From NCBI RefSeq assembly GCF_030464345.1, contig NZ_VCYH01000001.1, forward strand, positions 248,001-312,000: DNA of 64,000 nt, given 5' to 3'. Below, one piece after another: positions 36,834 to 61,874 of this stretch (position 1 is the stretch's first letter; each line of letters opens with the position of its first letter). The stretch comes from Methanoculleus frigidifontis. GTDB taxonomy: Archaea > Halobacteriota > Methanomicrobia > Methanomicrobiales > Methanoculleaceae. Below the pieces are notes generated by a model. It made no database searches. It worked only from the letters and a program-made list of their open reading frames with translations, and was not told the DNA's origin. Position numbers and translations under genes: made by a program.

Positions 36834-39800
36834 TTACCCGATGACCTTCAAAAACCCGTGCCGGGGCTCCAGCACCTCGCCGCCGCGGCGGAGCTGCTCG
36901 ATGGCGTTCTCGATCTTGTCGCGGGCAAAGCCCTGCTGGATGAGTGTCTCGACAACCTGGTCGGCCTTCGCCTGGCCGCCGCCGTCTTTCGCGAGGTCGC
37001 GGATGACCTCCTTGACCGTCCGGATGATATCGCGCTGCGACTTGGAGACGCCGGTCACCAGCTTGTCGATATCGAAGCTGCCGCTCTCGGCGTCGTAGGC
37101 GACCTGGCGCAGGCAGGTGTCGACGATCCGCAGCACCCGGTCGGTGTCGGTGGTGTCGACGGTGTTCGCGAGCCGCATCCGCGCACTCGCTTCGGCGAGG
37201 CGGACGAGCGCTTCGAGCTGCCGGGCGGTGACCGGGACCGGCTTGTTCCCGCTCGCGAGGTTTCGCAGTTTCATATAGTACTGGATCAGCGCCTCCTTCG
37301 CGCCGTCCGAGAGGATGGGAAAGCAGGTCCGCTTTGCATACGCGATGTACTTCCGCAGGAGCGTAGGATCGATGTCCGGGATGACCGGCGCGAGCGCCCG
37401 CTGGATGTATGCCTCGTCGACGTCGGGGAGGGGCTCGTACGCGTGCTGCTTAATGAGCTCGCCGACGGCGTGGGTCTTGACGATGTGGTTCGCGATCGCG
37501 CCGTCGCGCTGGACCTCGGGCTGGTCGGTCATCACGAAGATCAGGTCGAACCGCGAGAGGAGCGACGGGGGCATGTTGATCTGCTCGGCGATCGGCACGA
37601 ACTGGTCGAACCGCCCGAGTTTCGGGTTCGCCGCACCGAGGAGGGCGCACCGCGACTTCAGCGTCGCGGTGATCCCGGCTTTTGCGACCGAGATCGAGTT
37701 GCCGCACCAGACCGGTATCCCGCTTCTCCTGACGTAGAGCATGTGGTTCGGAACCTCAAGGCAGTAGATCATGCCCCTATAGGGCCGCCGCTCGATATGC
37801 CGCTGTCCGTTCGTGTTGATGTTCGGTTCGTTCTGGCCGTCGCGGATGAAGGTCACCTGGTAGGTGTCGTGGCTTGCCGTCGAGGTCCCGCCCCGCGGAT
37901 TAGACGCGACCGTCCCTGCTTCCCGCATGATGCGGGCGTTTCCGGACCAGCCCTTCTTCAGCAGGAGCTCGGTGACGTCGTCGGCGAGCCTCTTCGAGGA
38001 AGTGGTGTACACCGAGACCCCGGTCGTTTTGTGGACGTATCCGTCACCGAGCATGAGCGCGTCGAGCAGCACCCCGATCTGCTTGGGGGGGAGCCGCTTG
38101 GCATAGTCGGGGACGTACTTCTCGTGGCATTTGCCGAAGGGCGCGAGGTGCTCTGCAAGCTGCTTTGCGTTGATCGCGAAGTTCTTGCCGTCGTAGGAGA
38201 AGCGGAACGGCAGCCGCTCAAGACACTGCCGGATCTTCTCGGCCGACTCGGGGATCGTCTGCGAGAGAACCACGCGGTAGGGAACGGCCGTCTGGTAATG
38301 CCGCTGCACCGACCCTTCGGAGAGGAAGTAGCCAAGGAACTCAAGCCAGTCGTCCATCCCGATGTGGATGGGATCGGTGAGCCGGCCTTCGGCATTCTGG
38401 TTCGCGAACTTAACGACCGGCGGAATCTCGTAGATCTCCTGCCGCTTCCCCGTCCATACGGCGTTCCTTTTGAACCGCATCCGCTTGTGAACCGGGATCT
38501 CGTCCATGCGAATGAACCGGAACCCCTCCCACTCGTCGGCGCGGCGGTTCAGGTTGACGTACATCCGGTGGTTCGGCGTGACCGCAAGGTCGACCTGCCG
38601 TGATTTGACGTAGTACAGCTCGCCGTCGTACTCCGAGGCCGTGAAACCCGACGGCGATGCGTACTCGAGCCTGCCGTCCGGGGAGAGCGTCGCGACACGG
38701 TCGTCCGCGGTTACGTCCCGGAAGAGCTTCCACCCCCTCTCCGTGAGCACCTCGGTCTCGTCGTCGTAGCACTGTTGTTCCATCGCCTCGTGCAGCGCGC
38801 TCCGATCCTCCTTCGCCATCTTGTCCATCTCGTCCACGGCCGCAATACCCATATCCGCGAGGACGAGAGCACCGGCCTCGAGCGTCCAGCGGCCGTCGCC
38901 GAACTCGTCCTTGACCGCCGTCGCCGTCAGACCGGCCGAGGTCGAGGACTTGCCGCTCGTGTAGATCCCGCGGGGCGAGAGCTTGACGACGTAGCGGAGG
39001 ATCTGCGACTTCGCGATACCCGGGTCGCCGACGAGCAGGAGGTGGATATCGCCGCGGAGCCGGGAGCCGTCCGGCATCTCCTTGGCGATCCCGCCGAAGA
39101 GCTGCAGCGCGATCGCCTCCTTCACGTCGTCGGTGCCGTAGATCGTCGGGGCGATCGAGCGGGCGATCTTCTTGTAGATCGCACCGTCACGGGCGAGCCC
39201 CTTGATGGCGGCCTCATCCTCCTCCGAGATCGAGACCTCCTCGAACTCCTTCTCCGCGACCTCGATCGAGTTGCACTCGAGGTAAATATCGAAGAGGGTG
39301 CTTTTCTGCCCGTAGTTCACCCGCTGGATCGAGCGGAGGATGCCGTTGACGACGATCCGGTCGCCGGGCGCGACCATTCCGGTAAGGTCGTCGGTGGCGT
39401 CGATATCGAGCGTCTGCGGCTGTTCGCCGCCGCGGAGACCCTCCGGCGACTCCTGGATCCGGAGCTTCTGGGCGTCGACGAAGATGCACCGGTTCAGGAC
39501 GAGGTCCATCCGGCTTTTGCGCTCGCAGTGCGGGCAGAAGTCAGGCTCCTCGAACCTGCTGTAGTTCTGCGGGATCGGGTCGGTGTTCTTGTTGCAGGAC
39601 TTGCACCGGAAGACCGCATCCACGAGCCGAGGCCGGACCTCGGTGGTCTTGCGCAGGATCCCCTCGATACTGACAAAGGTGTTGATCTGCTCCGCCCGGA
39701 TATCGCGGACGTTCACTTTCTGGGGCAGGTTGGTGAACCGGATGCTGATCCCGGTCGGCTCCTGCCCGTTCTTCAGCTTGATCAGCCGGTTCTGGACTAT

Positions 39801-40013
39801 CGCGTCGCGGATGTCCCCGATGACCTTGCCCGGCCGTTTCAGGAGCTCGAACGCCAGGGTGTTGTTGAGGATCGTCCGGTAATCGATGGAGAGCGACCGC
39901 TTGTGCGGATATTCCCGCGCAAGTTCGGCGAGCTCCCGCTTGTAGCGCTTCTTGAGAAACTTCGTCCACTCGGTGACGACGTCGGTGACTTCGACCTCTA
40001 CTTCTTCGGGCAC
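36834..40013 (-). CDS. mcm: Replicative helicase MCM with an intein
   Basis: 1059 residues, of which about 701 are MCM. From GTG 40013: N-terminal domain with zinc motif CKSC...CPHC (residues 137-163), AAA+ Walker A GDPGIAKSQ (329-337), Walker B AAVDEMDKM, then after the intein the sensor and arginine-finger region (LLSRFDLIF) and a C-terminal winged helix. It unwinds DNA at replication forks as a hexamer. An intein of 358 residues interrupts the helicase after MEQQ. It lies directly downstream of rfcS, with a short 10-base gap, forming a replication operon. Confidence 0.95.
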   Translation of the reverse strand: MPEEVEVEVTDVVTEWTKFLKKRYKRELAELAREYPHKRSLSIDYRTILNNTLAFELLKRPGKVIGDIRDAIVQNRLIKLKNGQEPTGISIRFTNLPQKVNVRDIRAEQINTFVSIEGILRKTTEVRPRLVDAVFRCKSCNKNTDPIPQNYSRFEEPDFCPHCERKSRMDLVLNRCIFVDAQKLRIQESPEGLRGGEQPQTLDIDATDDLTGMVAPGDRIVVNGILRSIQRVNYGQKSTLFDIYLECNSIEVAEKEFEEVSISEEDEAAIKGLARDGAIYKKIARSIAPTIYGTDDVKEAIALQLFGGIAKEMPDGSRLRGDIHLLLVGDPGIAKSQILRYVVKLSPRGIYTSGKSSTSAGLTATAVKDEFGDGRWTLEAGALVLADMGIAAVDEMDKMAKEDRSALHEAMEQQCYDDETEVLTERGWKLFRDVTADDRVATLSPDGRLEYASPSGFTASEYDGELYYVKSRQVDLAVTPNHRMYVNLNRRADEWEGFRFIRMDEIPVHKRMRFKRNAVWTGKRQEIYEIPPVVKFANQNAEGRLTDPIHIGMDDWLEFLGYFLSEGSVQRHYQTAVPYRVVLSQTIPESAEKIRQCLERLPFRFSYDGKNFAINAKQLAEHLAPFGKCHEKYVPDYAKRLPPKQIGVLLDALMLGDGYVHKTTGVSVYTTSSKRLADDVTELLLKKGWSGNARIMREAGTVASNPRGGTSTASHDTYQVTFIRDGQNEPNINTNGQRHIERRPYRGMIYCLEVPNHMLYVRRSGIPVWCGNSISVAKAGITATLKSRCALLGAANPKLGRFDQFVPIAEQINMPPSLLSRFDLIFVMTDQPEVQRDGAIANHIVKTHAVGELIKQHAYEPLPDVDEAYIQRALAPVIPDIDPTLLRKYIAYAKRTCFPILSDGAKEALIQYYMKLRNLASGNKPVPVTARQLEALVRLAEASARMRLANTVDTTDTDRVLRIVDTCLRQVAYDAESGSFDIDKLVTGVSKSQRDIIRTVKEVIRDLAKDGGGQAKADQVVETLIQQGFARDKIENAIEQLRRGGEVLEPRHGFLKVIG
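37698..38771 (-). mobile_element. MCM intein with LAGLIDADG homing endonuclease
   Basis: Encodes residues 415-772 of the precursor. Splicing block A starts CYDDETEVLT; block B is AVTPNHRMYV; the C-terminal blocks are YCLEVPNHMLYV and VWCGN, followed by Ser as the first C-extein residue. The penultimate residue is Gly rather than the usual His. Two dodecapeptide motifs (LEFLGYFLSEGS and VLLDALMLGDGYV) show an apparently intact homing endonuclease. The insertion point MEQQ/SISVAKAG, next to Walker B, is a known MCM intein site. Confidence 0.92.
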
Positions 40014-47697: not shown

Positions 47698-47743
47698 GCG
47701 AGGGTTGCCGAGCCAGGTCAAAGGCGATAGGTTCAGGGCCTTT
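47698..47743 (+). pseudogene. Truncated tRNA-Leu copy (5' half)
   Basis: The first 29 bases are identical to the tRNA-Leu that starts 72 bases downstream, and the anticodon loop GGTTCAGGGCC is kept, but the anticodon stem is changed (GCGATA/TATCGC) and there is no T arm. It is a partial duplication, as left by tandem duplication or by an element that integrated at the tRNA. Confidence 0.7.
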
Positions 47744-47769
47744 ATCGCGAATTACACCATAGATCCCGT

Positions 47770-47854
47770 GCGAGGGTTGCCGAGCCAGGTCAAAGGCGCT
47801 GGGTTCAGGGCCCAGTCTCGTAGGAGTTCACCGGTTCGAATCCGGTCCCTCGCA
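47770..47854 (+). tRNA. tRNA-Leu (anticodon CAG)
   Basis: An 85-nt class II tRNA. The acceptor stem is GCGAGGG/CCCTCGC with discriminator A. The D arm is GCC...GGC, the anticodon arm CTGGG-TTCAGGG-CCCAG reads CAG, the variable arm is CTC-GTAG-GAG and the T arm is ACCGG-TTCGAAT-CCGGT. CCA is not encoded. No intron. Confidence 0.95.
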
Positions 47855-47976
47855 CATTCTCTCTTATGAAATGTTATTCTGGTAGCCTTTGGTAGATCGC
47901 ATTTTTCGCTGCAGTTGTCGGGGCTCTGGTTTGAGTGCTGTGTAAGGTTACGTACTCGTGGTGCCCCACACGTGGG

Positions 47977-52166: not shown

Positions 52167-52411
52167 TCTCTGTCGATCCCCTACAGGGGCCGGCGGTGGT
52201 GCTCGGGATGGCCGGGGCGGTGCTGGTGGCGTCGCGGTCGCAGGGCATCCGGCGGGCAGGGTTTGGGTGTTGGGTAGTGGGGAACTTACTCTGGGTGCTG
52301 TATGCGTCATACCAAGAGAATACTTATCAGCTAAGTCTCTTTGGGTTCTATTGGCTAACAGCAGTTATAGGATTGGTAAACCTGCAAGAAAACCGGAAAG
52401 ATGAAGGTTAA
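52163..52411 (+). CDS. Small three-helix membrane protein
   Basis: 82 residues from an ATG that overlaps the primase stop (ATGA). Hydrophobic segments VVLGMAGAVLVAS, FGCWVVGNLLWVLYA and LFGFYWLTAVIGLV make three helices. Similar short proteins accompany other archaeal genes, but I assign no function. Last gene of the element's operon. Confidence 0.55.
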   Translation: MISVDPLQGPAVVLGMAGAVLVASRSQGIRRAGFGCWVVGNLLWVLYASYQENTYQLSLFGFYWLTAVIGLVNLQENRKDEG

Positions 52412-52751
52412 CGTGCTTCGTATTTCAGGAAAATTGCTTTGTGCTTAACATTCTCGGTGGAGCACATGCTTATTCCTATAGCACCTGCTTTCCACACTGC
52501 GAAAAGCTTTGAGTACGGGAGAATGTGTCAGTGGGGTGTTACATCTGGTCCGTGTAGACGTGGGACAAATGAGGGGTGTTGGTCTACCTTAACCACTCCT
52601 GAATGATGTATAATGAGCATTGCGGATTTGTTTTACAGGTTTTAATGAATTTTCAGCAATTTAGTGCATATAATACGCTTATTCTCATTTTAACCAAATA
52701 ATATGGACTTATTTCGACAAATTTAAGCCCTCCGGTTAACGATCTGAAAAC
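52412..52751 (+). promoter_or_regulatory. AT-rich promoter region of the restriction-like operon
   Basis: 340 bases without a gene and much more AT-rich than the genome. A TATA-like GCATATAATAC lies at about 52667-52676, placing transcription start near 52698. No repeats, att site or RNA fold could be supported here. Confidence 0.45.
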
Positions 52752-55502
52752 ATGGAACAACCCTGCTCTCCAATTACTCAAAGAATACTCAGCGAACCCA
52801 AGCCCCTATCAGATCCCCAGAAACTAGCCGTACTCTGTAAACGCAATCACATTCGGATTATCGCAGGAGCAGGGGCTGGTAAAACGGAGACCCTGACCCG
52901 ACGGATCGTTTACCTCCTTCTCGAGAAGCAAGTGGAACCTTCTGCTATCGTGGCATTCACGTTCACAGAGAATGCGGCGGAGAGTATGAAAAGCCGCATC
53001 TACGAACGGGTAAAACATCTTGGTGGAGAGGAGATTTGCGCACGTTTGGGCGATATGTACGTTGGGACAATCCATGGATACTGCTCTCGGATTCTCGAGG
53101 AACATTTTGGATACGGCGATTATGGGGTGCTTGATGAACGCCAGGAAATGGCGTTCATCATGCGTGTAGGTTGGAGCCTGGGTCTCGGCAAAAATGGATT
53201 TTATTCGGCTAATTGTGAGGCGTTTCTCAATACTCTCAGTGTGGTCTATGGAGAGATGCTACCTCAAAATAGGTTAGAAAGCCATGCTCCCGATTTTTAC
53301 AGAATGTTCCGGTCGTATGAGCAGCTACTCGATGAGCACAAGCGGCTCACGTTCGATCGTATGATCAGCATATCCGTGGAGAAACTCGCTGAGAATCCTG
53401 AAGTTCTCAATAGCGTCACCCACCTTATCGTCGATGAGTATCAGGACATCAACCGGGCCCAGGAACGTCTTATTCAGCTTATCGGAAATGGCGCATCGAT
53501 TTTTATCGTCGGTGATCCGAGGCAGACGATTTATCAATGGCGTGGTTCTGATGAGCAGTGTTTTGATGATTTCAAGCATAATTACGCTGACTGTGCCACC
53601 ATACCAATCACCGAAAACCGCCGGAGTACACGGCAAGTCATCGATCTTGCTAACAGTTTTTCCGATACCTTCCGGGGTGACGAAGAACCCCACATGGATA
53701 AGGTCAGGGAGGAGGAAGGTGCCACGTACGGAATCGCATTGGAGAATGATACCGCTGAAGCGGTGTGGATATGCGACCAGATTGAGCGGTATGTCAATGG
53801 AGGTATCTGTTCGTTCAAAGATATCGCTCTGTTATTCCGGAGTGTGACGACCTCCGCCCCACCCTTCATTGATGAAATGCGCCGCAGAGGGATTCCCTGC
53901 ATAGTCGGCGGTAAGGTGGGGTTGTTCCGGAGACCCGAAATTCGATCACTTGGCCAGATCTTTTGCTGGCTCTCTGAAGACGGGTTCTGGCAGGAAAATC
54001 GGTGGGACTGGAAAAACCGGATCACTGGTGACGAGATACTCACAGCGGCAATCCGAAATTGGCAAGAGGGTTTCCCGGCTGGGATCGAGAATGCAGAGCT
54101 GCTTGAGAGGTCTATTCGTTTATGGAAGGAATCGGTCCTTAAGGGTGGTTACGAAAACTTCACCGAGGCGTACTACCAGCTCCTCACAACTCTCGGCTAT
54201 CACTTCCTTGATCCGGCGGATCCCGTTCACGCTGCTGTTATGGCAAATGTCGGTAATTTCGGCAACATTCTCACCGATTTTGAGACTGCAAACAGGCTTG
54301 GTGGCCGGGGGGCGGATTGGCCACGCGATCTCAAAAATCTCTGTTGGTACATCAACATGTTTGCAAGCTCAAAATACGAGGAACACCCAGGCGATGAGAT
54401 GGACGTAGTCAATGCGGTGAACGTGTTCACAATTCACCAGAGCAAAGGTCTGGAGTGGCCCCTGGTCTTCATTCCCTCCATGGTCACCCGGCGCTTTCCC
54501 TCCTCAATGGTCGGGCGTCAGCGCGATTGGTTCATTCCCAGGAATCTGTTCGATGCCGTGAAGTACGAAGGCGATCTGGAAAGCGAACGTAAACTGCTGT
54601 ACGTGGCACTTACCCGGGCAAAGGACGTGGTTGTGGTCAGCAGGTTCACCTCGGCCGGGGGGCAAAACCGGGGTAGCAGCGAATTCATGGATGACCTTGA
54701 TGAGCTTAACCTTCAGGAATGGAATCCGGCGACTTCTTTGCCCCTCTATCCTCTACGGGTCAGCGAGGCTTCGGATGAACTCCGGACATACGCGGCCACA
54801 GAGATTGTCGATTATGGGAAATGTCCGCACTTCTACCGACTACGCCATCTCTGGGGGTATCAGCCGGGGTTGAGCAAGTACCTTGGCTACGGATCGACGC
54901 TTCACTTCTGCATGCGAACGGCCGCGGAGCTGATGCGTGAGGAAGGGTACTCCGTGCGTAGCGCTGTCTCAACGGCCATCGGCCGTAACTTCTACATGCC
55001 CTTTATGCCGCCAAAGCGGATGGAGGAGATCAAACTGAATGCAAGGCGAAACTTGATTCGTTTCGTGCATGCGTGTGAAGAGGATATGCACAGAATCCGG
55101 GAGGTGGAGACACGGATTGAATTTCCACTGCAGAACGCGATTGTCGCTGGGAAGGCCGATGTGATTCTGCATGATGGCTATGGGGTTGAGATCAGGGACT
55201 ACAAAGCGACGGACGCAGCAACGACGACTGAGGAGGTGGCAACCCAAATTCGGTTATACGCACACGGGCTGTCAACATTGGGCGAGACGGTACGCAATGG
55301 ATCGGTTGGTTTCCTTGAAGAAGCGTTGGTGGAAGCGGTCGATGTGGGGCAGGAGACTGTTGCCGAAACCGTCAGGCGCACTGAAGAGCGTATCAGCGAT
55401 ATAGAAAGCGGCAGGTTTACGCCCTGCCCGGGGCAATTTTGTAAACGTTGTGATTACAGCATTATCTGCAGGTGGAAAGCATGCCACGACGAGAGACACT
55501 AG
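52752..55502 (+). CDS. UvrD-like helicase fused to Fe-S PD-(D/E)XK nuclease
   Basis: 916 residues. Helicase motifs in order: SDPQKLAVL (Q motif), AGAGAGKTETL (residue about 38), AFTFTENAAESM, VDEYQDINRAQ, VGDPRQTIYQWRGS, ENRRSTRQVI, FTIHQSKGLEWP and YVALTRAKD. The C-terminal part is a RecB/AddB-like nuclease: an early Cys in YGKCPHFYRLRHLWGY, then VAGKADVIL, EIRDYKAT, QIRLYAHGL, and CKRCDYSIIC, which together give the four cysteines of an Fe-S nuclease. It overlaps the methyltransferase gene by 22 bases. It probably degrades or remodels DNA in a defence system. Confidence 0.88.
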   Translation: MEQPCSPITQRILSEPKPLSDPQKLAVLCKRNHIRIIAGAGAGKTETLTRRIVYLLLEKQVEPSAIVAFTFTENAAESMKSRIYERVKHLGGEEICARLGDMYVGTIHGYCSRILEEHFGYGDYGVLDERQEMAFIMRVGWSLGLGKNGFYSANCEAFLNTLSVVYGEMLPQNRLESHAPDFYRMFRSYEQLLDEHKRLTFDRMISISVEKLAENPEVLNSVTHLIVDEYQDINRAQERLIQLIGNGASIFIVGDPRQTIYQWRGSDEQCFDDFKHNYADCATIPITENRRSTRQVIDLANSFSDTFRGDEEPHMDKVREEEGATYGIALENDTAEAVWICDQIERYVNGGICSFKDIALLFRSVTTSAPPFIDEMRRRGIPCIVGGKVGLFRRPEIRSLGQIFCWLSEDGFWQENRWDWKNRITGDEILTAAIRNWQEGFPAGIENAELLERSIRLWKESVLKGGYENFTEAYYQLLTTLGYHFLDPADPVHAAVMANVGNFGNILTDFETANRLGGRGADWPRDLKNLCWYINMFASSKYEEHPGDEMDVVNAVNVFTIHQSKGLEWPLVFIPSMVTRRFPSSMVGRQRDWFIPRNLFDAVKYEGDLESERKLLYVALTRAKDVVVVSRFTSAGGQNRGSSEFMDDLDELNLQEWNPATSLPLYPLRVSEASDELRTYAATEIVDYGKCPHFYRLRHLWGYQPGLSKYLGYGSTLHFCMRTAAELMREEGYSVRSAVSTAIGRNFYMPFMPPKRMEEIKLNARRNLIRFVHACEEDMHRIREVETRIEFPLQNAIVAGKADVILHDGYGVEIRDYKATDAATTTEEVATQIRLYAHGLSTLGETVRNGSVGFLEEALVEAVDVGQETVAETVRRTEERISDIESGRFTPCPGQFCKRCDYSIICRWKACHDERH

Positions 55503-58500
55503 AAGAATATGAACACAAAAAGATGGAGGAGCACAAGAAGAACCTGAAGAAAGTCCTTCGCGAGCTCTTCCAGATTGAGGATGCAGCTGAACTTGACCAT
55601 GGCATGTACCGGATCATGAAGTTGAGACGGGAGCAGGTCGAGGAGTTTATCAACAACGGATTGATTGAAGAGGTTGATGCGGTCTTCGGCGAGTACACTG
55701 CTCAGCAGCGGGAAATGGCAGAGCGGGACAAACAGGCGCTTGAAGAGGAGATCCTGCACAAACTTGGAGATAAAGCACTCGCGAAGGATAGTATTCGGGA
55801 GGATCTACTTATTACCCCTATAGCTCAGGAACTCAATGAGCGTTACCTGGCTGTCTGCAATCGCGTACGGGCATGTGCCATGAGCGACCAGCACAAAGGT
55901 GAAGTATTCTCCCGCATCGCCGACTTTTTCGGCAGGTACTATGATGACGGGGATTTCATGTCGCTCCGCCGCTACTCGGCCGATGGGAAGTACGCCATCC
56001 CCTATAACGGTGAGGAAGTGCTGCTCCACTGGGCAAACAAGGATCAGTACTACATCAAGACGGAGCGGCACCTGAAGAATTATGGATTTGAGGTCGGGGA
56101 AAATACTACTGTTCGATTTGAAGTTGTGAAGGCGGAATCAACTAAAAATAATAACAAGACCGAAAAACGGCATTTGGTTCTTGCTCCCGAGACGGAAGCA
56201 AACGATGAAAGTGAGGCAATCATCCCCGTAGAATGGAAGGAAAATGCCCGGGAACTCATCATTCGCTTCCAGTTCATCACCCTCGATGATGTAGCCCTAA
56301 ACGAGTATACGGAATTTATTCCTAGGGGGGCAAAACGCAAAAACCCGAACCGTGACGATGTGATCAAGGGAGTCGCCACCAAGATTCTCGAACAAGTTCC
56401 CGGATCCGATCTGAAGGCGAGTCTAAGTCTGGGAAAACCAGGTGATAATAAACCACTGCTTGAAAAGCACATCACCCGCTTTTCCTCGCAGCATACGTCC
56501 GACTACTTCATCCACAAGAATCTACACAAGTTCCTTGCACAGGAGCTCGACTTCTACATCAAGAATGAGGTCTTCCGCCTCGATGATCTGACAGCCGATA
56601 ACGAGCGACAGATGCAGCACTACGTTGCGTGTGCCCGTGTGATGAAGACGATCTGTCTTCGTATCATCGACTTTCTCGCTCAGATGGAGGAGTTCCAGAA
56701 GAAACTCTGGGAGAAGAAGAAGTTCGTACTCTCAACGAATTACTGCATGACGCTTGATATGATCGATGAGGAATTCTTCGCGGAGCATTTTGAGGAGATT
56801 GTTGTTGGGATGAGAGATAATTGGGAAGAATTGCTCGAGTTCAATTTAGATAGCAGCAGGCAGGCTAGCCTTTCATCGTTTTTAGTAGAAGAACCTAACT
56901 TGTTCCAAGAAGCAAATCCCTACTTAATACTCGACACAAAAAATTTTGATGCAGTATTTGTCGAAAAATTGCTCAGCACTTTTGAAAATTTAGAAGAAGA
57001 TACATCTGGTTTAATTATAAAATCAGAGAACTGGCAAGCATTGAATTTGCTGAAAAACAGATTCGCGGAAAGCATCAATTGCATTTATATCGATCCACCT
57101 TACAACACGGTTGAAGGCACGTTTGTCTATAAGAACGATTATAAGAATTCTTCTTGGCTATCTATGATGGCAGACAGATTGCTATTGGCTAGAGATTTGC
57201 TACCGAAGTCAGGGACGCTTTCCGTTGCTATCGACGATACTGAAACATCCTACTTGAGGATCATTTCAGACAGCATCTTCGGAGTTGAAAACTACATAGC
57301 GACTTTTGCGATTGAGATTAATCCTGCAGGTCAAAATTTGAAGCCAAATGCCCCTGCACTAAGCCACGATTATTGTCATGTTTTTGCGAAAGACATTTCC
57401 GAATCTGAATTACTATTAAGAGAATTAACGCCTGAAGAGATCGCACAATATACAGAGACAGACTCTAAAGGACTCTATCTCTGGGATAATCTGCGAAGAA
57501 GAGGAGGAAATTCCCGCCCAGCAGACAGACGCAGACAATGGTATCCTTTATACATAAATTTAGCTGATAAACGGGTGAGTACTGAACCTTTTGAGAATTC
57601 GACTGAAATTTGGCCAATAGACCCTAAAGGGGAGAATAGAATCTGGAGATTGGAGACTGAAAGCGCAAAACGTGATATCGCAAATGGAGAAATATCAGTA
57701 ATCGAGAAAGCTGGTCGTGCAGAGATCGTGAAAAAAACTCGGATGCCAGATGGGAAAAAGCCCAAAACACTATGGGCTGACGCAAAATATTCTGCGACTA
57801 CCTATGGCACAAAATATTTGAATAAATTTTTTAGAGAAAACGAATTTAGCTACCCAAAATCGATATTTTTGGTCCAGGATTTAATTAAACATTGGGCAAA
57901 TCCTGACGATATAGTGTTGGACTTCTTCGCCGGTTCCGGTACGACGGCTCATGCTGTTCTTAACCTTAACAAGGAAGACGGAGGCGATCGGAAGTACATT
58001 CTCGCTGAGATGGGTAACTACTTCGATACTGTAACAAAGCCCCGCATCCAGAAAGTGATGTACTCTGATAGTTGGAAAGATGGCGAACCGGAACCGGATG
58101 GCACTGGTCAGAGCCACATGTTCAAGTACATCGAGCTGGAGCAGTACGAGGACACTCTCGACAATATAGTACTTGAGCAGCGGACGCTTGACCAGTTTGA
58201 CGACTATCTCCTTCACTACATACTCGACGTCGAATCACGTGATAGTTTGTGCCGGGTGAACCTAGACGCCTTCCGCAATCCATTTGAGTACAAACTTCGT
58301 ATACGCCGGGCTGATGGCAAGGGTCACGAAGACAGGACTGTAGACCTTGTTGACACCTTCAACTATCTCCTTGGATTGCGAGTAAAGCAGCTCGTTCCCT
58401 TTGACAACGAGGCAACCAGCACTCACTATCAGGTCGTCCACGGCACTCTCCCCTCCAAACAGTCAGCAACGATTATCTGGAGGAAATGCACCACTGATGA

Positions 58501-58645
58501 AGTATTCCTTAAAGCTGATAAGGCCTTTATCGAGGAGCATGTCCTTACGGAACTTCCTGCCGACGTGGTGTACGTGAACGGCTACTGCTTCGTTGACGGA
58601 GCCCGCCCCATTGAAAAGGAATTCAAGGATCTCATGGGGGCGTGA
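55481..58645 (+). CDS. Large type III-like adenine DNA methyltransferase (Mod)
   Basis: 1054 residues from ATG 55481 (a GTG at 55472 is possible). A long N-terminal extension of about 500 residues, charged and with coiled-coil-like stretches, precedes a beta-class MTase: DPPYNT (residue about 538), then the target-recognition region (about 560-800), then VLDFFAGSGTTAHAV (about 815). DPPY predicts N6-adenine methylation. Typical type III Mods are about 600-700 residues, so the extension is notable. The middle (about 56870-57900) is much more AT-rich than both ends. The stop is followed by the Res gene after 7 bases. Confidence 0.88.
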   Translation: MPRRETLEEYEHKKMEEHKKNLKKVLRELFQIEDAAELDHGMYRIMKLRREQVEEFINNGLIEEVDAVFGEYTAQQREMAERDKQALEEEILHKLGDKALAKDSIREDLLITPIAQELNERYLAVCNRVRACAMSDQHKGEVFSRIADFFGRYYDDGDFMSLRRYSADGKYAIPYNGEEVLLHWANKDQYYIKTERHLKNYGFEVGENTTVRFEVVKAESTKNNNKTEKRHLVLAPETEANDESEAIIPVEWKENARELIIRFQFITLDDVALNEYTEFIPRGAKRKNPNRDDVIKGVATKILEQVPGSDLKASLSLGKPGDNKPLLEKHITRFSSQHTSDYFIHKNLHKFLAQELDFYIKNEVFRLDDLTADNERQMQHYVACARVMKTICLRIIDFLAQMEEFQKKLWEKKKFVLSTNYCMTLDMIDEEFFAEHFEEIVVGMRDNWEELLEFNLDSSRQASLSSFLVEEPNLFQEANPYLILDTKNFDAVFVEKLLSTFENLEEDTSGLIIKSENWQALNLLKNRFAESINCIYIDPPYNTVEGTFVYKNDYKNSSWLSMMADRLLLARDLLPKSGTLSVAIDDTETSYLRIISDSIFGVENYIATFAIEINPAGQNLKPNAPALSHDYCHVFAKDISESELLLRELTPEEIAQYTETDSKGLYLWDNLRRRGGNSRPADRRRQWYPLYINLADKRVSTEPFENSTEIWPIDPKGENRIWRLETESAKRDIANGEISVIEKAGRAEIVKKTRMPDGKKPKTLWADAKYSATTYGTKYLNKFFRENEFSYPKSIFLVQDLIKHWANPDDIVLDFFAGSGTTAHAVLNLNKEDGGDRKYILAEMGNYFDTVTKPRIQKVMYSDSWKDGEPEPDGTGQSHMFKYIELEQYEDTLDNIVLEQRTLDQFDDYLLHYILDVESRDSLCRVNLDAFRNPFEYKLRIRRADGKGHEDRTVDLVDTFNYLLGLRVKQLVPFDNEATSTHYQVVHGTLPSKQSATIIWRKCTTDEVFLKADKAFIEEHVLTELPADVVYVNGYCFVDGARPIEKEFKDLMGA

Positions 58646-58652
58646 ATGGATC

Positions 58653-61600
58653 ATGGCTCTCCATGAGTGGCTCATCCTCAACGACTACGTGCTCCACCAA
58701 TTCGGGATAACTAGCAAAGAGAAATACCGGGATGTTCGAGCACTCCTCTCCAGCACTGAGGGCAAGGACTCTGAAGAACGCGAAGCGGAGCAGCGGCAAG
58801 ACGGGATCAGCTCATTCTGCGATGCCCTCTTGAAGTGGTTAGAACTTGAGCGGATTGGTGGTGAACCCGGATTACTCATTGATCCTGATGATCTTGAAAC
58901 CTATGACCTGCGGATCAGTGCTCATCTGGCTCACATAAACCAAAGACGCGAAACACCTGTCCGGCTCAAGTACTTCCAGTGGCTCGCGGCCCTCTTCACC
59001 GAATACTATCTGCACCGCTTTTTTACTGACCGCGTTGTGCTCCTTAACAGTCTCAACGATCACGTGGAGGTCTTTGTTAATCAAAGCGTATCCGGAACTG
59101 CCAGGAGAGAAAGAGCTTATGATCGGTTTGATTTCAGCGTTGATGACCTTCGGAAACTCGCATTCTGGATGGCAACAGGGTCGGGCAAAACATTCCTCAT
59201 GCACCTCACCTATCTTCAGTTCCTCTATCACAACCGGAATGCTGTCCCGAAATATCAACTCAAGATCGACAACATTTTACTTATCACGCCCGGGGAAGAC
59301 CTTACCAACCAGCATCTCCACCATCTCAAAGAAAGTTCCATCCCCTGCGAACGTTTCCAAGCTCAGAACCCCGGCGGGCTCTGCGCATTTGAGTCGTCTG
59401 ATACTATCAAGGTCATTGAGATCCAGAAGATAGTTGAGCAGAAAAAAGGGAGCGGTGCCTCCGTTGATATTGAGAGCTTCGGAAAGAAGAACCTCATCTT
59501 TGTCGATGAAGCGCACAAGGGGAGTGGTGGGAATACCTGGAGGGCTAACCGGAATTGGTTGGCAGAGCAAGGATTTGCCTTTGAGTATAGTGCAACCCTT
59601 GGCCAAGCCGTCGGTTCTGGAAACGGAAGAAACGGTGCCAATGACCTTCTCGCTGAGTACGGTAAATCTATCCTCTTCGACTATTCGTACCGTCACTTCT
59701 ACGATGATGGTTATGGGAAAGAGTATCGCCTTCTCAATGTCCGAGATGACGCATACGATGAAGACGTTCGAGATACGCTCTTTCTTGCAAACCTGCTCTC
59801 ATTCTACCAACAGAAGGCAGTCCACCGTGATTATCCATTCATGGTTCGGGATTACAATCTCGCGGATCCACTCTGGTTATTCGTCGGAAGTCAGGTGAAC
59901 GTATCCGAGGAAGAATCCGACGTTTTTAAGATCATTTCCTTCCTCAACCGTGTAGTTACCGAACGGGGCTGGGTCATTGAAACGATCCAGCGTTTTCTTG
60001 ATGGCAACTCGGGCATCAAAACAAAAAACGATCATGATCTCTTTGGGCCGATGTTTCAGGAACGGCGCTTCTCCTATATCCGACAGCAGGGAAAGAACGC
60101 AGTTGATCTGTACACGGATATCCTCAAAGAAGTCTTTCACGTCAGGGAAGGCGGCTCAATTGTCCTAACGCCGTTGAAAGGAGCAGCTGGGGAGATATCG
60201 GTTTCCTGCGGGGGCAATCCATTCTTTGCTCTAATTTATGTTGGAGATCGCAACAAGTTCCTAGAACTCGTGGAGGAAGCCGAAACCGCCCTCCAAGTAG
60301 GTCCCGCCATAGATCACCCCTCGTTATTTGCCTCCATCAACAGTCATGCATCGGCAGTAAATATTCTAATCGGGGCAAAAAAATTCCTCGAAGGTTGGGA
60401 CTGCTACCGCGTCAGTGCCATGGGTCTCCTCGATATTGGGCAGAGTGAGGGAACTCAGATCATTCAGCTCTTCGGTCGCGGCGTGCGGCTGAAAGGAAAG
60501 GACGGATCATTGAAAAGGAGCACCAGCAGTTTCGGGGATCATCCTACCCACCTTCCCATCCTTGAGACGCTAAATCTTTTCGGTGTCAAGGCAGATTATC
60601 TCAAGAAATTCGAAGACTATCTTAGACAGGGTGGCATGAATACGGATCTCCGTGTCCCATTTGAGATTCCAATTACCATACAACACGATACTCTTGAACG
60701 TGGGCTCAAGGTTCCGTCTATTGAGCGATCCGGATTCAAGCGGCAGATACAATTCGTCCTCGACTCCGCAGCGGTACGCACCATATCTGCTGACCTATCG
60801 GTGAAGGTTGACCTCAAGCAGAGCAGTTATTATGAGAACATGTCGCTTGAAGCGGATCAGCGGGAAGAACCGGTGGCTATTCCAGCAGAACTCCTTGATC
60901 TGCTCGACTGGAACCGAATCTACTTTGTTCTCCTTGATTACCGAGCCTTGAACGGATGGTCAAACATTGTTTTTGACAAAAAGGAACTGAAAAAGATCAT
61001 CGAAGATGGAAATTATGCCCTTACTTGCCCGAAGCATATGGTTCGTCCAACAAAGTTTGCCGACATCGAAAAAGTGGAAAACATCGCCATTACCATCTTG
61101 AAGAAGACCCTCAAGGCGACCTATGCGGATCGGCAGAGCAAATGGTTCCATGAAAACGCCCGTATGGGGACTTTGACCGAAGGTCATGGCAACTTTGCCT
61201 TTGAGAAGTACATTGTTGAGGTTGACGAATCCGCATCTGATATCATCCAACAGGCGAAAGAAATAGATTCAAACATTGACCTGTTCATCGTTTCCAACGG
61301 TGGCAGATTCATTGCCAATGCATTTTATGAGCGCCATCTTTTCCAGCCGCTTCTTACAAAAGAGGCTCAAGAGAGCAAATTCTCGATTACTCCACAGGAA
61401 TTAAACTCCGGTGAAAGGATCTTTGTCGAACGATTAAGGGAGTATGTGGAAAGCCACGAGGCCGAACTCACCGATAAGACAATATATCTCCTCCGTAATC
61501 GCCCTAACGATAAAGGCGTCGGCTTTTATAAGACAGCATGGTTCTACCCTGATTTCATTCTTTGGGTGGTCGACAACCAGACAAACTATCAGAGGATTGT

Positions 61601-61874
61601 TTTCGCCGATCCAAAGGGTATCATCCATCTGAACGGATTTGAAGACGAGAAAGTTCAACTATGCAATGACATTCAGGAAGTCGAAAGACGAATTAAATCC
61701 AGAACCGGGATAGATGATTTTTCGCTTGATTCGTTCATAATCTCAAGGACAAAACGGGTAGATGCTGACAAAAAATTTCAGAACCCTGGAAGGAATCGTT
61801 ACGATGAGCTTCACATCCTCTTCCTCGAGGACGGTATGAGGTTTGTTGAAAAGATGCTTGGGATTGAAGGCTGA
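58653..61874 (+). CDS. Type III Res-like helicase-nuclease
   Basis: 1073 residues from ATG 58653. SF2 helicase motifs: WMATGSGKTFLM (residue about 172), FVDEAHKG, YSATLGQ, GWDCYRVSAM and IIQLFGRGVRLKG. The C-terminal endonuclease motif is FYPDFILWV followed by IVFADPKG, a PD...DxK site. This is the layout of type III restriction Res subunits and their relatives, which translocate and cut DNA with the Mod subunit. It is the last gene of the three-gene unit. Confidence 0.9.
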   Translation: MALHEWLILNDYVLHQFGITSKEKYRDVRALLSSTEGKDSEEREAEQRQDGISSFCDALLKWLELERIGGEPGLLIDPDDLETYDLRISAHLAHINQRRETPVRLKYFQWLAALFTEYYLHRFFTDRVVLLNSLNDHVEVFVNQSVSGTARRERAYDRFDFSVDDLRKLAFWMATGSGKTFLMHLTYLQFLYHNRNAVPKYQLKIDNILLITPGEDLTNQHLHHLKESSIPCERFQAQNPGGLCAFESSDTIKVIEIQKIVEQKKGSGASVDIESFGKKNLIFVDEAHKGSGGNTWRANRNWLAEQGFAFEYSATLGQAVGSGNGRNGANDLLAEYGKSILFDYSYRHFYDDGYGKEYRLLNVRDDAYDEDVRDTLFLANLLSFYQQKAVHRDYPFMVRDYNLADPLWLFVGSQVNVSEEESDVFKIISFLNRVVTERGWVIETIQRFLDGNSGIKTKNDHDLFGPMFQERRFSYIRQQGKNAVDLYTDILKEVFHVREGGSIVLTPLKGAAGEISVSCGGNPFFALIYVGDRNKFLELVEEAETALQVGPAIDHPSLFASINSHASAVNILIGAKKFLEGWDCYRVSAMGLLDIGQSEGTQIIQLFGRGVRLKGKDGSLKRSTSSFGDHPTHLPILETLNLFGVKADYLKKFEDYLRQGGMNTDLRVPFEIPITIQHDTLERGLKVPSIERSGFKRQIQFVLDSAAVRTISADLSVKVDLKQSSYYENMSLEADQREEPVAIPAELLDLLDWNRIYFVLLDYRALNGWSNIVFDKKELKKIIEDGNYALTCPKHMVRPTKFADIEKVENIAITILKKTLKATYADRQSKWFHENARMGTLTEGHGNFAFEKYIVEVDESASDIIQQAKEIDSNIDLFIVSNGGRFIANAFYERHLFQPLLTKEAQESKFSITPQELNSGERIFVERLREYVESHEAELTDKTIYLLRNRPNDKGVGFYKTAWFYPDFILWVVDNQTNYQRIVFADPKGIIHLNGFEDEKVQLCNDIQEVERRIKSRTGIDDFSLDSFIISRTKRVDADKKFQNPGRNRYDELHILFLEDGMRFVEKMLGIEG

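What the first reader, a model, noticed from the sequence alone, without database searches (positions are those of the whole stretch)
52752..61874. Three-gene restriction-like system: UvrD/Fe-S nuclease, giant Mod and Res
Three large genes are coupled (22-base overlap, then a 7-base gap) and share a single promoter region. Standard type III restriction has only mod and res. Here a UvrD-like helicase fused to an Fe-S PD-(D/E)XK nuclease is added, and Mod carries an extra N-terminal extension of about 500 residues that might dock the helicase-nuclease. All catalytic motifs are intact. I know of no named defence system with this exact trio; it lacks the PglZ, DrmB, BrxC or PLD components of BREX and DISARM.
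Basis: partly seen in the sequence, partly recalled or inferred. Interest (0 to 1): 0.78.

Follow-up and report, generated by a model that had tools for sequence, protein, structure and literature searches.

The report
Restriction operon with a DNA-degrading helicase
A methanogen-like archaeon carries a three-gene DNA-defence operon in which a type III-like restriction-modification pair travels with a helicase fused to a DNA-cutting domain; the pairing is real and conserved across archaea and bacteria, but it was described in print in 2017, so this is a well-formed new example rather than a new kind of system.

Summary
UvrD-nuclease (52752-55502), giant Mod (55481-58645) and Res (58653-61874) overlap by 22 bases and are spaced by 7, with all catalytic motifs present. 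The trio is a conserved unit. In the window's class (232 genomes searched) 9 genomes have the giant Mod and 8 of the 9 have the UvrD-nuclease in the same operon. The same order occurs on an Athalassotoga (Thermotogota) plasmid. In 15 trios the UvrD-nuclease, Res and the outer parts of Mod diverge together, while the target-recognition part of Mod is swapped independently. Selection on all three genes is purifying. However, the association is already in print: Hudaiberdiev et al. 2017 (PMC5704561) report that the commonest neighbourhood of UvrD-Cas4 fusions is type III Mod plus Res. The long Mod N-terminus belongs to a general giant-Mod subfamily (PADLOC PDLC03646), equally present where the helicase is SNF2 or absent, so it is not a UvrD dock. 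Most likely mechanism: methylation-guided type III-like restriction plus RecB/AdnB-like degradation of the cut DNA. Co-function is well supported; the degradation step is inferred. Novelty: new member of a known, unnamed and untested kind. Less described: the same giant Mod-Res pairs alternatively with a DrmD-like SNF2 helicase.

The parts
52752..55502 (+). Gene 1, 916 aa: UvrD-like SF1 helicase fused to a C-terminal Fe-S PD-(D/E)XK (Cas4/RecB-type) nuclease
   Evidence: Pfam hits; AF2 model pLDDT 89, best solved matches UvrD/PcrA, then AdnB, AddA, RecB
52866..52886 (+). Helicase Walker A (GAGAGKT)
   Evidence: motif position 39; G41, G43, K44, T45 invariant in 22 sequences
55197..55205 (+). 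Nuclease D816-Y-K818
   Evidence: D816 and K818 at least 90% conserved in 22 sequences
55440..55469 (+). C-terminal Cys triplet C897-x2-C900-x5-C906 (with C691: probable Fe-S cluster ligands)
   Evidence: invariant in 22 sequences; Fe-S role recalled from Cas4/AddB
55481..58645 (+). Gene 2, 1054 aa: giant type III-like Mod (beta-class N6 adenine methyltransferase)
   Evidence: PADLOC MTase_III PDLC03646 591.6 bits, residues 21-1042; residues 410-1045 superpose on EcoP15I Mod
55481..56710 (+). N-terminal extension of Mod (about residues 1-410), of unknown function, general to the giant-Mod subfamily
57092..57103 (+). Mod catalytic motif DPPY
   Evidence: position 538
57158..57850 (+). Probable target-recognition region of Mod (about residues 560-790), exchanged between close relatives
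   Evidence: identity collapse in the middle of Mod between close trios; not correlated with Res divergence; GC3 0.36
57923..57946 (+). Mod AdoMet motif FFAGSGTT
   Evidence: position 815
58653..61874 (+). Gene 3, 1073 aa: type III-like Res (SF2 helicase plus C-terminal PD-(D/E)XK nuclease)
   Evidence: ResIII; PADLOC REase_III PDLC03654 507.4 bits; only copy in the genome
59172..59192 (+). Res Walker A (ATGSGKT)
61545..61616 (+). Res nuclease motif Y-P-D-F ... D-P-K (D967, D986, K988)
52167..52751 (.). Stretch before gene 1 (after the 959-aa frame), presumed to hold the operon promoter
   Evidence: position only; promoter not shown

Best explanation
The locus is a three-component, type III-like restriction-modification operon. 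Mod methylates adenine in an asymmetric target set by its exchangeable recognition domain. Mod plus Res (ATP-dependent SF2 motor with a PD-(D/E)XK nuclease) cuts DNA that lacks the mark. The UvrD-nuclease is a dedicated RecB/AdnB-like partner that loads on the cut ends, unwinds them 3'-5' and degrades the strands, so that invading DNA cannot be re-joined or repaired. Shown here: gene content and motifs, conservation of the operon, co-divergence of the three genes, purifying selection, specificity-domain exchange. Inferred: methylation, cutting, and the order and division of labour between the two nucleases.
For: Operon conservation: 8 of the 9 giant-Mod genomes among 232 of the class; 8 of 14 giant-Mod genomes among 392 of the phylum, one of them (G233) with a broken Mod; same order with overlaps on Athalassotoga plasmid pATS1 and with a divergent UvrD-nuclease on a Priestia plasmid. 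Res tree of 44 rows: the window sits in a 13-row clade that is UvrD-linked throughout, support 98/93. Co-divergence over 15 trios: UvrD-Res Spearman 0.77, UvrD-ModN 0.79, UvrD-ModC 0.90, 0 of 2000 permutations as high; recognition region against Res 0.09, 548 of 2000. dN/dS 0.07-0.16 for UvrD-nuclease, its nuclease domain and Mod N, 0.08-0.19 for Res and its C-terminal domain. Between four close trios the outer Mod is 70-100% identical per 60-column block while the middle falls to 6-58%, with Res 92-93%. Structure: helicase like UvrD/AdnB/AddA/RecB. The window's genome has no RecC match and AddB only far below cut-off (24.2 against 903.7 bits), so a dedicated end-degrading enzyme would fill a gap. 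Haloarchaeal giant Mod-Res plasmids carry next to them a divergent AddAB-like triad (UvrD-like, PDDEXK, UvrD+PDDEXK), a separate pairing with helicase-nucleases.
Against: No experiment was found. The UvrD-nuclease family is not tied to type III: of 80 loci of its relatives 43 showed no methyltransferase of three tested types within 5 kb (many contigs are short, and L093's Mod lies just outside), and others pair with another large methyltransferase, with a TnsA-type protein or with a reverse transcriptase. Giant Mod-Res exists without it: 14 of 44 Res rows are SNF2-linked and 14 have neither, so it is not essential to restriction. Priestia presumably has AddAB already (recalled). No docking surface was identified.
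Confidence: 0.6

Rival explanations
1. The UvrD-nuclease is an autonomous defence enzyme (Gabija- or RT-associated-helicase-like) that merely sits beside the restriction pair in a defence island.
For: The family occurs alone or with other partners; best PADLOC matches of the helicase part are GajB and RTasHel; the window's genome has a second, NERD-fused copy without Mod-Res.
Against: Fixed order and gene overlaps across domains, a 13-row clade all linked, and co-divergence with Mod and Res exceed island clustering.
Confidence: 0.13
2. Division of labour is reversed: Mod-Res acts mainly as sensor and motor, and the UvrD-nuclease is the main cutter.
For: In many relatives the Res nuclease Lys is His: 9 of 16 UvrD-linked and 7 of 14 without a found helicase (2 of these 14 unreadable), against 0 of 14 SNF2-linked.
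Against: The window's own Res keeps D-P-K. Independent-pair test: no association of His with UvrD linkage. His may still be catalytic, as in Vsr (recalled). Res C-terminal domain under purifying selection, dN/dS 0.08-0.19.
Confidence: 0.14
3. The UvrD-nuclease is a repair partner that processes breaks made by self-restriction in the host chromosome so they can be recombined.
For: RecB/AddA-like architecture; no RecBCD/AddAB over cut-off in the genome by the RecC and AddB models; the 2017 paper suggests a RecB/AddB-like recombination role.
Against: Linkage to a GC-atypical restriction operon rather than to repair genes; found on plasmids.
Confidence: 0.1

Closest known systems
UvrD-Cas4 (pfam12705) fusions with type III Mod and Res, Hudaiberdiev et al. 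2017, BMC Evol Biol 17:232 (PMC5704561)
   Same: Same domain fusion and same partners; the paper calls Mod+Res the most common neighbourhood of the fusion and infers a defence role (section 8).
   Different: Unnamed and untested there. Section 8 does not mention the long Mod N-terminus, the SNF2 alternative, or exchange of the Mod recognition region.
Type III restriction-modification (EcoP15I, EcoPI, Mbo45V)
   Same: Beta-class Mod core superposes on EcoP15I Mod (Z 28.0, rmsd 14.9 over 384 residues) and 6k0w (Z 28.3, rmsd 3.2 over 341); mod followed by res; SF2 motor plus nuclease in Res.
   Different: Mod is 1054 aa with about 410 extra N-terminal residues; Res has no solved relative by sequence at E 0.001; a third gene is present.
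SNF2 (DrmD-like) + giant Mod + Res operons on E. coli, Klebsiella, Aeromonas and Blastomonas plasmids
   Same: Same giant Mod (PDLC03646) and Res (PDLC03654) families, helicase gene usually directly upstream.
   Different: The helicase is SF2/SNF2 (DrmD model 652.6 bits for the E. coli plasmid protein), not SF1 plus nuclease.
AdnAB / AddAB / RecBCD
   Same: SF1 3'-5' helicase with C-terminal PD-(D/E)XK nuclease; AdnB Z 30.2, rmsd 3.7 over 582 residues, helicase part.
   Different: No second subunit next to it; embedded in a restriction operon.
Gabija (GajAB)
   Same: UvrD-type helicase (GajB models up to 184 bits).
   Different: No GajA among the genes tested; GajB lacks the fused nuclease (recalled).

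Membership tests
Type III restriction-modification | Mod is a beta-class adenine methyltransferase with DPPY before the AdoMet motif and a central recognition domain | tested here: met
   exchange of the central region
Type III restriction-modification | Res has an SF2 motor and a C-terminal PD-(D/E)XK nuclease, gene next to mod | tested here: met
Type III restriction-modification | Two subunits only | tested here: not met
   a third gene is conserved in the window's clade, 13 of 13 Res rows; hence 'type III-like with a third component'
Type III restriction-modification | One-strand methylation and cleavage from two inversely oriented sites | not testable with these tools
   needs biochemistry or a methylome
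UvrD-Cas4 restriction-associated fusion (Hudaiberdiev 2017) | UvrD SF1 helicase fused to a pfam12705 nuclease | tested here: met
   PF00580, PF13361, PF12705
UvrD-Cas4 restriction-associated fusion (Hudaiberdiev 2017) | Encoded with type III Mod and Res | tested here: met
UvrD-Cas4 restriction-associated fusion (Hudaiberdiev 2017) | Falls in the paper's monophyletic fusion clade | not tested
   the paper's sequences were not retrieved
Gabija | GajA (OLD ATPase/TOPRIM) partner | tested here: not met
   no GajA model among the three genes and two neighbours; for gene 1 only the best 25 of 58 and for gene 2 the best 25 of 36 families were shown
DISARM | DrmB, DrmA and DrmC present | tested here: not met
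   none shown for the three genes and two neighbours (same display limit)
BREX | PglZ and BrxC present | tested here: not met
   none shown for the three genes and two neighbours (same display limit)
AddAB / RecBCD | AddB or RecC partner | tested here: not met
   RecC 0 matches; AddB best 24.2 bits against a cut-off of 903.7 in the whole genome

The most novel reading that the evidence does not exclude
Giant-Mod type III-like systems form a distinct restriction subtype with a third 'motor slot', usually the gene directly upstream of mod. It is filled by a UvrD-Cas4 helicase-nuclease (mainly archaea, plus Athalassotoga, Poribacteria, Priestia), by a DrmD-like SNF2 helicase (bacteria), or by a neighbouring AddAB-like triad (haloarchaea). 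Lineages without RecBCD/AddAB would carry their own end-degrading enzyme with the restriction system.
Probability: 0.35. Interest if true: 0.55.

Novelty: new member of a known kind. Interest (0 to 1): 0.36.

Why it matters
Restriction in model bacteria relies on host RecBCD or AddAB to destroy cut DNA (recalled). An operon that brings its own helicase-nuclease, conserved across domains and co-evolving with Mod and Res, would let one test whether restriction needs a dedicated degradation step. It would also extend the type III definition from two to three components. The published association has no name and no experiment in the papers I could search, and the PADLOC 2023 library showed no specific model for the third gene.

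Tried and rejected
Docking by the Mod N-terminus: rejected as specific, because N-terminal residues stay invariant in 18 Mods that include SNF2-linked and helicase-less ones, and an SNF2-linked E. coli plasmid Mod matches PDLC03646 over 1-1056 of 1057. The extension itself was barely tested by the fold search, since VIA rows span mostly residues 450-968; I make no claim about its fold.

Res Lys-to-His as a mark of UvrD taking over cutting: the first sample looked strong (10 of 13 against 0 of 6, in which L166 was wrongly labelled UvrD-linked through its AddA-like neighbour). The larger sample weakened it (9 of 16 UvrD-linked, 0 of 14 SNF2-linked, 7 of 14 with neither, 2 unreadable), with no support in independent pairs. 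Kept as an oddity.

Integration at tRNA-Leu (47770-47855): no repeat of 16 bases or more of the stretch 47700-47900 was found in 79 kb. Phage relatives: partial matches only, 0 of 16 records cover 80%. PHROGs gave nothing specific for the neighbours.

Literature: seven searches led to one description of UvrD-Cas4 with Mod/Res, PMC5704561 (passages; section 8 whole). PMC2292703, PMC12839542, PMC12707154 and PMC12988326 were read as passages only, and the passages shown do not describe this trio; the other listed papers were seen in the search listing only. For the SNF2 + giant Mod + Res trio searches listed nothing that evidently describes it, which is weak evidence of absence.

Rows dropped: in the 44-row Res tree I left out duplicates of the same record, loci without a Res of 750 aa or more (such as L203, L205, L213) and short repeat fetches L175-L188. 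'None' is uncertain where little upstream DNA is held: L204 1 base, L209 2048, L194 2845, L031 3775.
Full report
1. What is there. Three long frames lie head to tail: UvrD-nuclease 52752-55502, Mod 55481-58645, Res 58653-61874, with a 22-base overlap and a 7-base gap from the ATG starts. Domain scans give UvrD helicase plus PDDEXK_1/Cas4, N6_N4 methylase, and ResIII. PADLOC names the second a type III methyltransferase (PDLC03646, 591.6 bits, nearly full length) and the third a type III restriction enzyme (PDLC03654, 507.4 bits), but for the first it showed only generic GajB/RT-associated helicase models. All expected motifs are present. The operon has 41-55% GC in a mostly richer surrounding with GC3 0.52-0.58 against 0.85-0.86 in both neighbours, so it was probably acquired. 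It sits between a 959-aa gene without Pfam match and an Orc1/Cdc6 gene.

2. Is it a unit? In 232 genomes of the class, 12 match the Mod at E <= 1e-30; 9 of these match over most of the giant Mod and 3 over the catalytic core only. In 8 of the 9 the UvrD-nuclease lies on the same strand before Mod with Res behind it. In G052 a 981-aa NB-ARC/TPR gene stands between UvrD-nuclease and Mod. The ninth, G054, has Mod-Res alone on its contig and a UvrD-nuclease elsewhere. In 392 genomes of the phylum 14 have the giant Mod; 8 of 14 have the UvrD-nuclease, 6 do not. Outside archaea the trio occurs, in the same order and tightly spaced, on Athalassotoga plasmid pATS1 and, with a divergent UvrD-nuclease, on Priestia plasmid p6. 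A Poribacteria contig has it behind Res, with a GmrSD gene between Mod and Res.

3. Do the three evolve together? Over 15 trios, pairwise identity of the UvrD-nuclease correlates with Res (0.77) and with the N- and C-terminal parts of Mod (0.79, 0.90), 0 of 2000 permutations reaching these values. The middle of Mod does not follow Res (0.09, 548 of 2000). Among four close trios the outer parts of Mod are 70-100% identical per 60-column block, the middle 6-58%, Res 92-93%. That is the signature of exchange of a target-recognition domain with the rest of the machine kept. Pairwise dN/dS in these four is 0.07-0.16 for the UvrD-nuclease, its nuclease domain and the Mod N-terminus, 0.08-0.19 for Res and its C-terminal domain, and 0.18-0.24 for the Mod C-terminus. 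In a Res tree of 44 rows (16 UvrD-linked, 14 SNF2-linked, 14 neither) the window lies in a 13-row clade that is UvrD-linked throughout (98/93); labels need 8 changes against a shuffled mean of 21.1 (0 of 200 as low). Priestia falls among the SNF2-linked half, which suggests a second, separate pairing.

4. What are the proteins like? The predicted Mod (mean pLDDT 73) superposes from about residue 410 to the end on type III Mods: 6k0w Z 28.3, rmsd 3.2 over 341 residues; EcoP15I 4zcf Z 28.0, rmsd 14.9 over 384. The first 410 residues are a general feature of the giant-Mod family. The UvrD-nuclease (pLDDT 89) matches UvrD/PcrA best, then AdnB (Z 30.2, rmsd 3.7 over 582), AddA and RecB. Res has no sequence relative of solved structure at E 0.001.

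5. A helicase slot. Giant Mod-Res pairs on enterobacterial, Aeromonas and Blastomonas plasmids have an SNF2 helicase just upstream; the E. coli one scores 652.6 bits with a DISARM DrmD model. On Hymenobacter it is several genes upstream and on Conchiformibius downstream. Haloarchaeal plasmids carry an AAA ATPase upstream and a divergent UvrD-like / PDDEXK / UvrD+PDDEXK triad next to it. Conversely, UvrD-nuclease relatives pair with other methyltransferases: of 80 loci, 7 were scored as giant Mod, 20 as another large methyltransferase, 10 as further types, 43 as none within 5 kb. On Phaeobacter, Yoonia and Nitrosomonas plasmids the operon is UvrD-nuclease, short Mod, TnsA-N protein.

6. Known or new? 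Hudaiberdiev et al. 2017 (PMC5704561; section 8 read) state that UvrD-Cas4 fusions occur most commonly with type III Mod and Res, and also with Dcm/Vsr, and infer an ancillary defence role. The trio is therefore a known but unnamed and untested association, and the window is a new, intact member. What I did not find described in the passages and sections I read: the giant-Mod subfamily as the partner, the SNF2 alternative, and the swap of Mod specificity against a co-diverging remainder.

7. Mechanism. Best supported: methylation-guided restriction by Mod-Res with RecB/AdnB-like degradation by the UvrD-nuclease. The genome lacks RecC and any AddB over cut-off, which makes such a partner useful. 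Steps inferred only: methylation, cutting, end loading, degradation. Against: the pair works or at least persists without the partner in other lineages, and the partner occurs without the pair. His instead of Lys in the Res nuclease of many relatives leaves open which nuclease does the cutting there; the window keeps Lys.

Noticed in passing
G000:C12:61536-64265 (L065:8537-11995 -): The window's own genome holds a second UvrD-nuclease, 1153-aa frame with an N-terminal NERD domain, without Mod or Res next to it; similar NERD fusion in L070.
   Followed up: partly
L069:2673-8787 (genome G207): A UvrD-nuclease homologue (45% identity) overlaps by 20 bases the next gene on the same strand, a reverse transcriptase matching PADLOC RT_UG5-nitrilase (675.6 bits): a possible DRT-type pairing of the same helicase-nuclease.
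   Followed up: partly
L224:7648-15992 (Haloprofundus plasmid), also L167, L221, L222: Giant Mod-Res preceded by an AAA/DUF4143 ATPase and flanked by a divergent AddAB-like triad (UvrD-like without N-terminal helicase match, PDDEXK, UvrD+PDDEXK).
   Followed up: partly
L024:9217-12159 -, L093:3240-5018 +, L165:11120-12897 +, L092:8907-11132 +: Extra genes nested inside the operon in relatives: an NB-ARC/TPR (STAND-like) gene, a GmrSD gene, an AAA ATPase plus DUF4276 pair, and a weak AAA_23 gene.
   Followed up: partly
L171, L172, L173 (Phaeobacter, Nitrosomonas, Yoonia plasmids): Alternative three-gene operon: UvrD-nuclease, short Mod, and a roughly 890-900-aa protein with weak ResIII and TnsA-N endonuclease matches (scanned in L171 only).
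   Followed up: partly
window 61545-61616 and the same site in relatives: The Res nuclease Lys is His in 16 of 42 readable rows, with at least 6 changes on the tree; never in the 14 SNF2-linked ones.
   Followed up: yes
window 36834-40013 -: MCM helicase gene whose MCM domain is interrupted and which holds a LAGLIDADG_3 match: an intein by appearance.
   Followed up: partly
L174:4552-16185 (G000:C1, mostly just beyond the window): A protein kinase gene, an N6_Mtase gene of 425 aa beside a 239-aa frame without Pfam match, and a CHAT (caspase-like) gene with a similar-looking second frame, downstream of the trio: possibly a wider defence island.
   Followed up: partly
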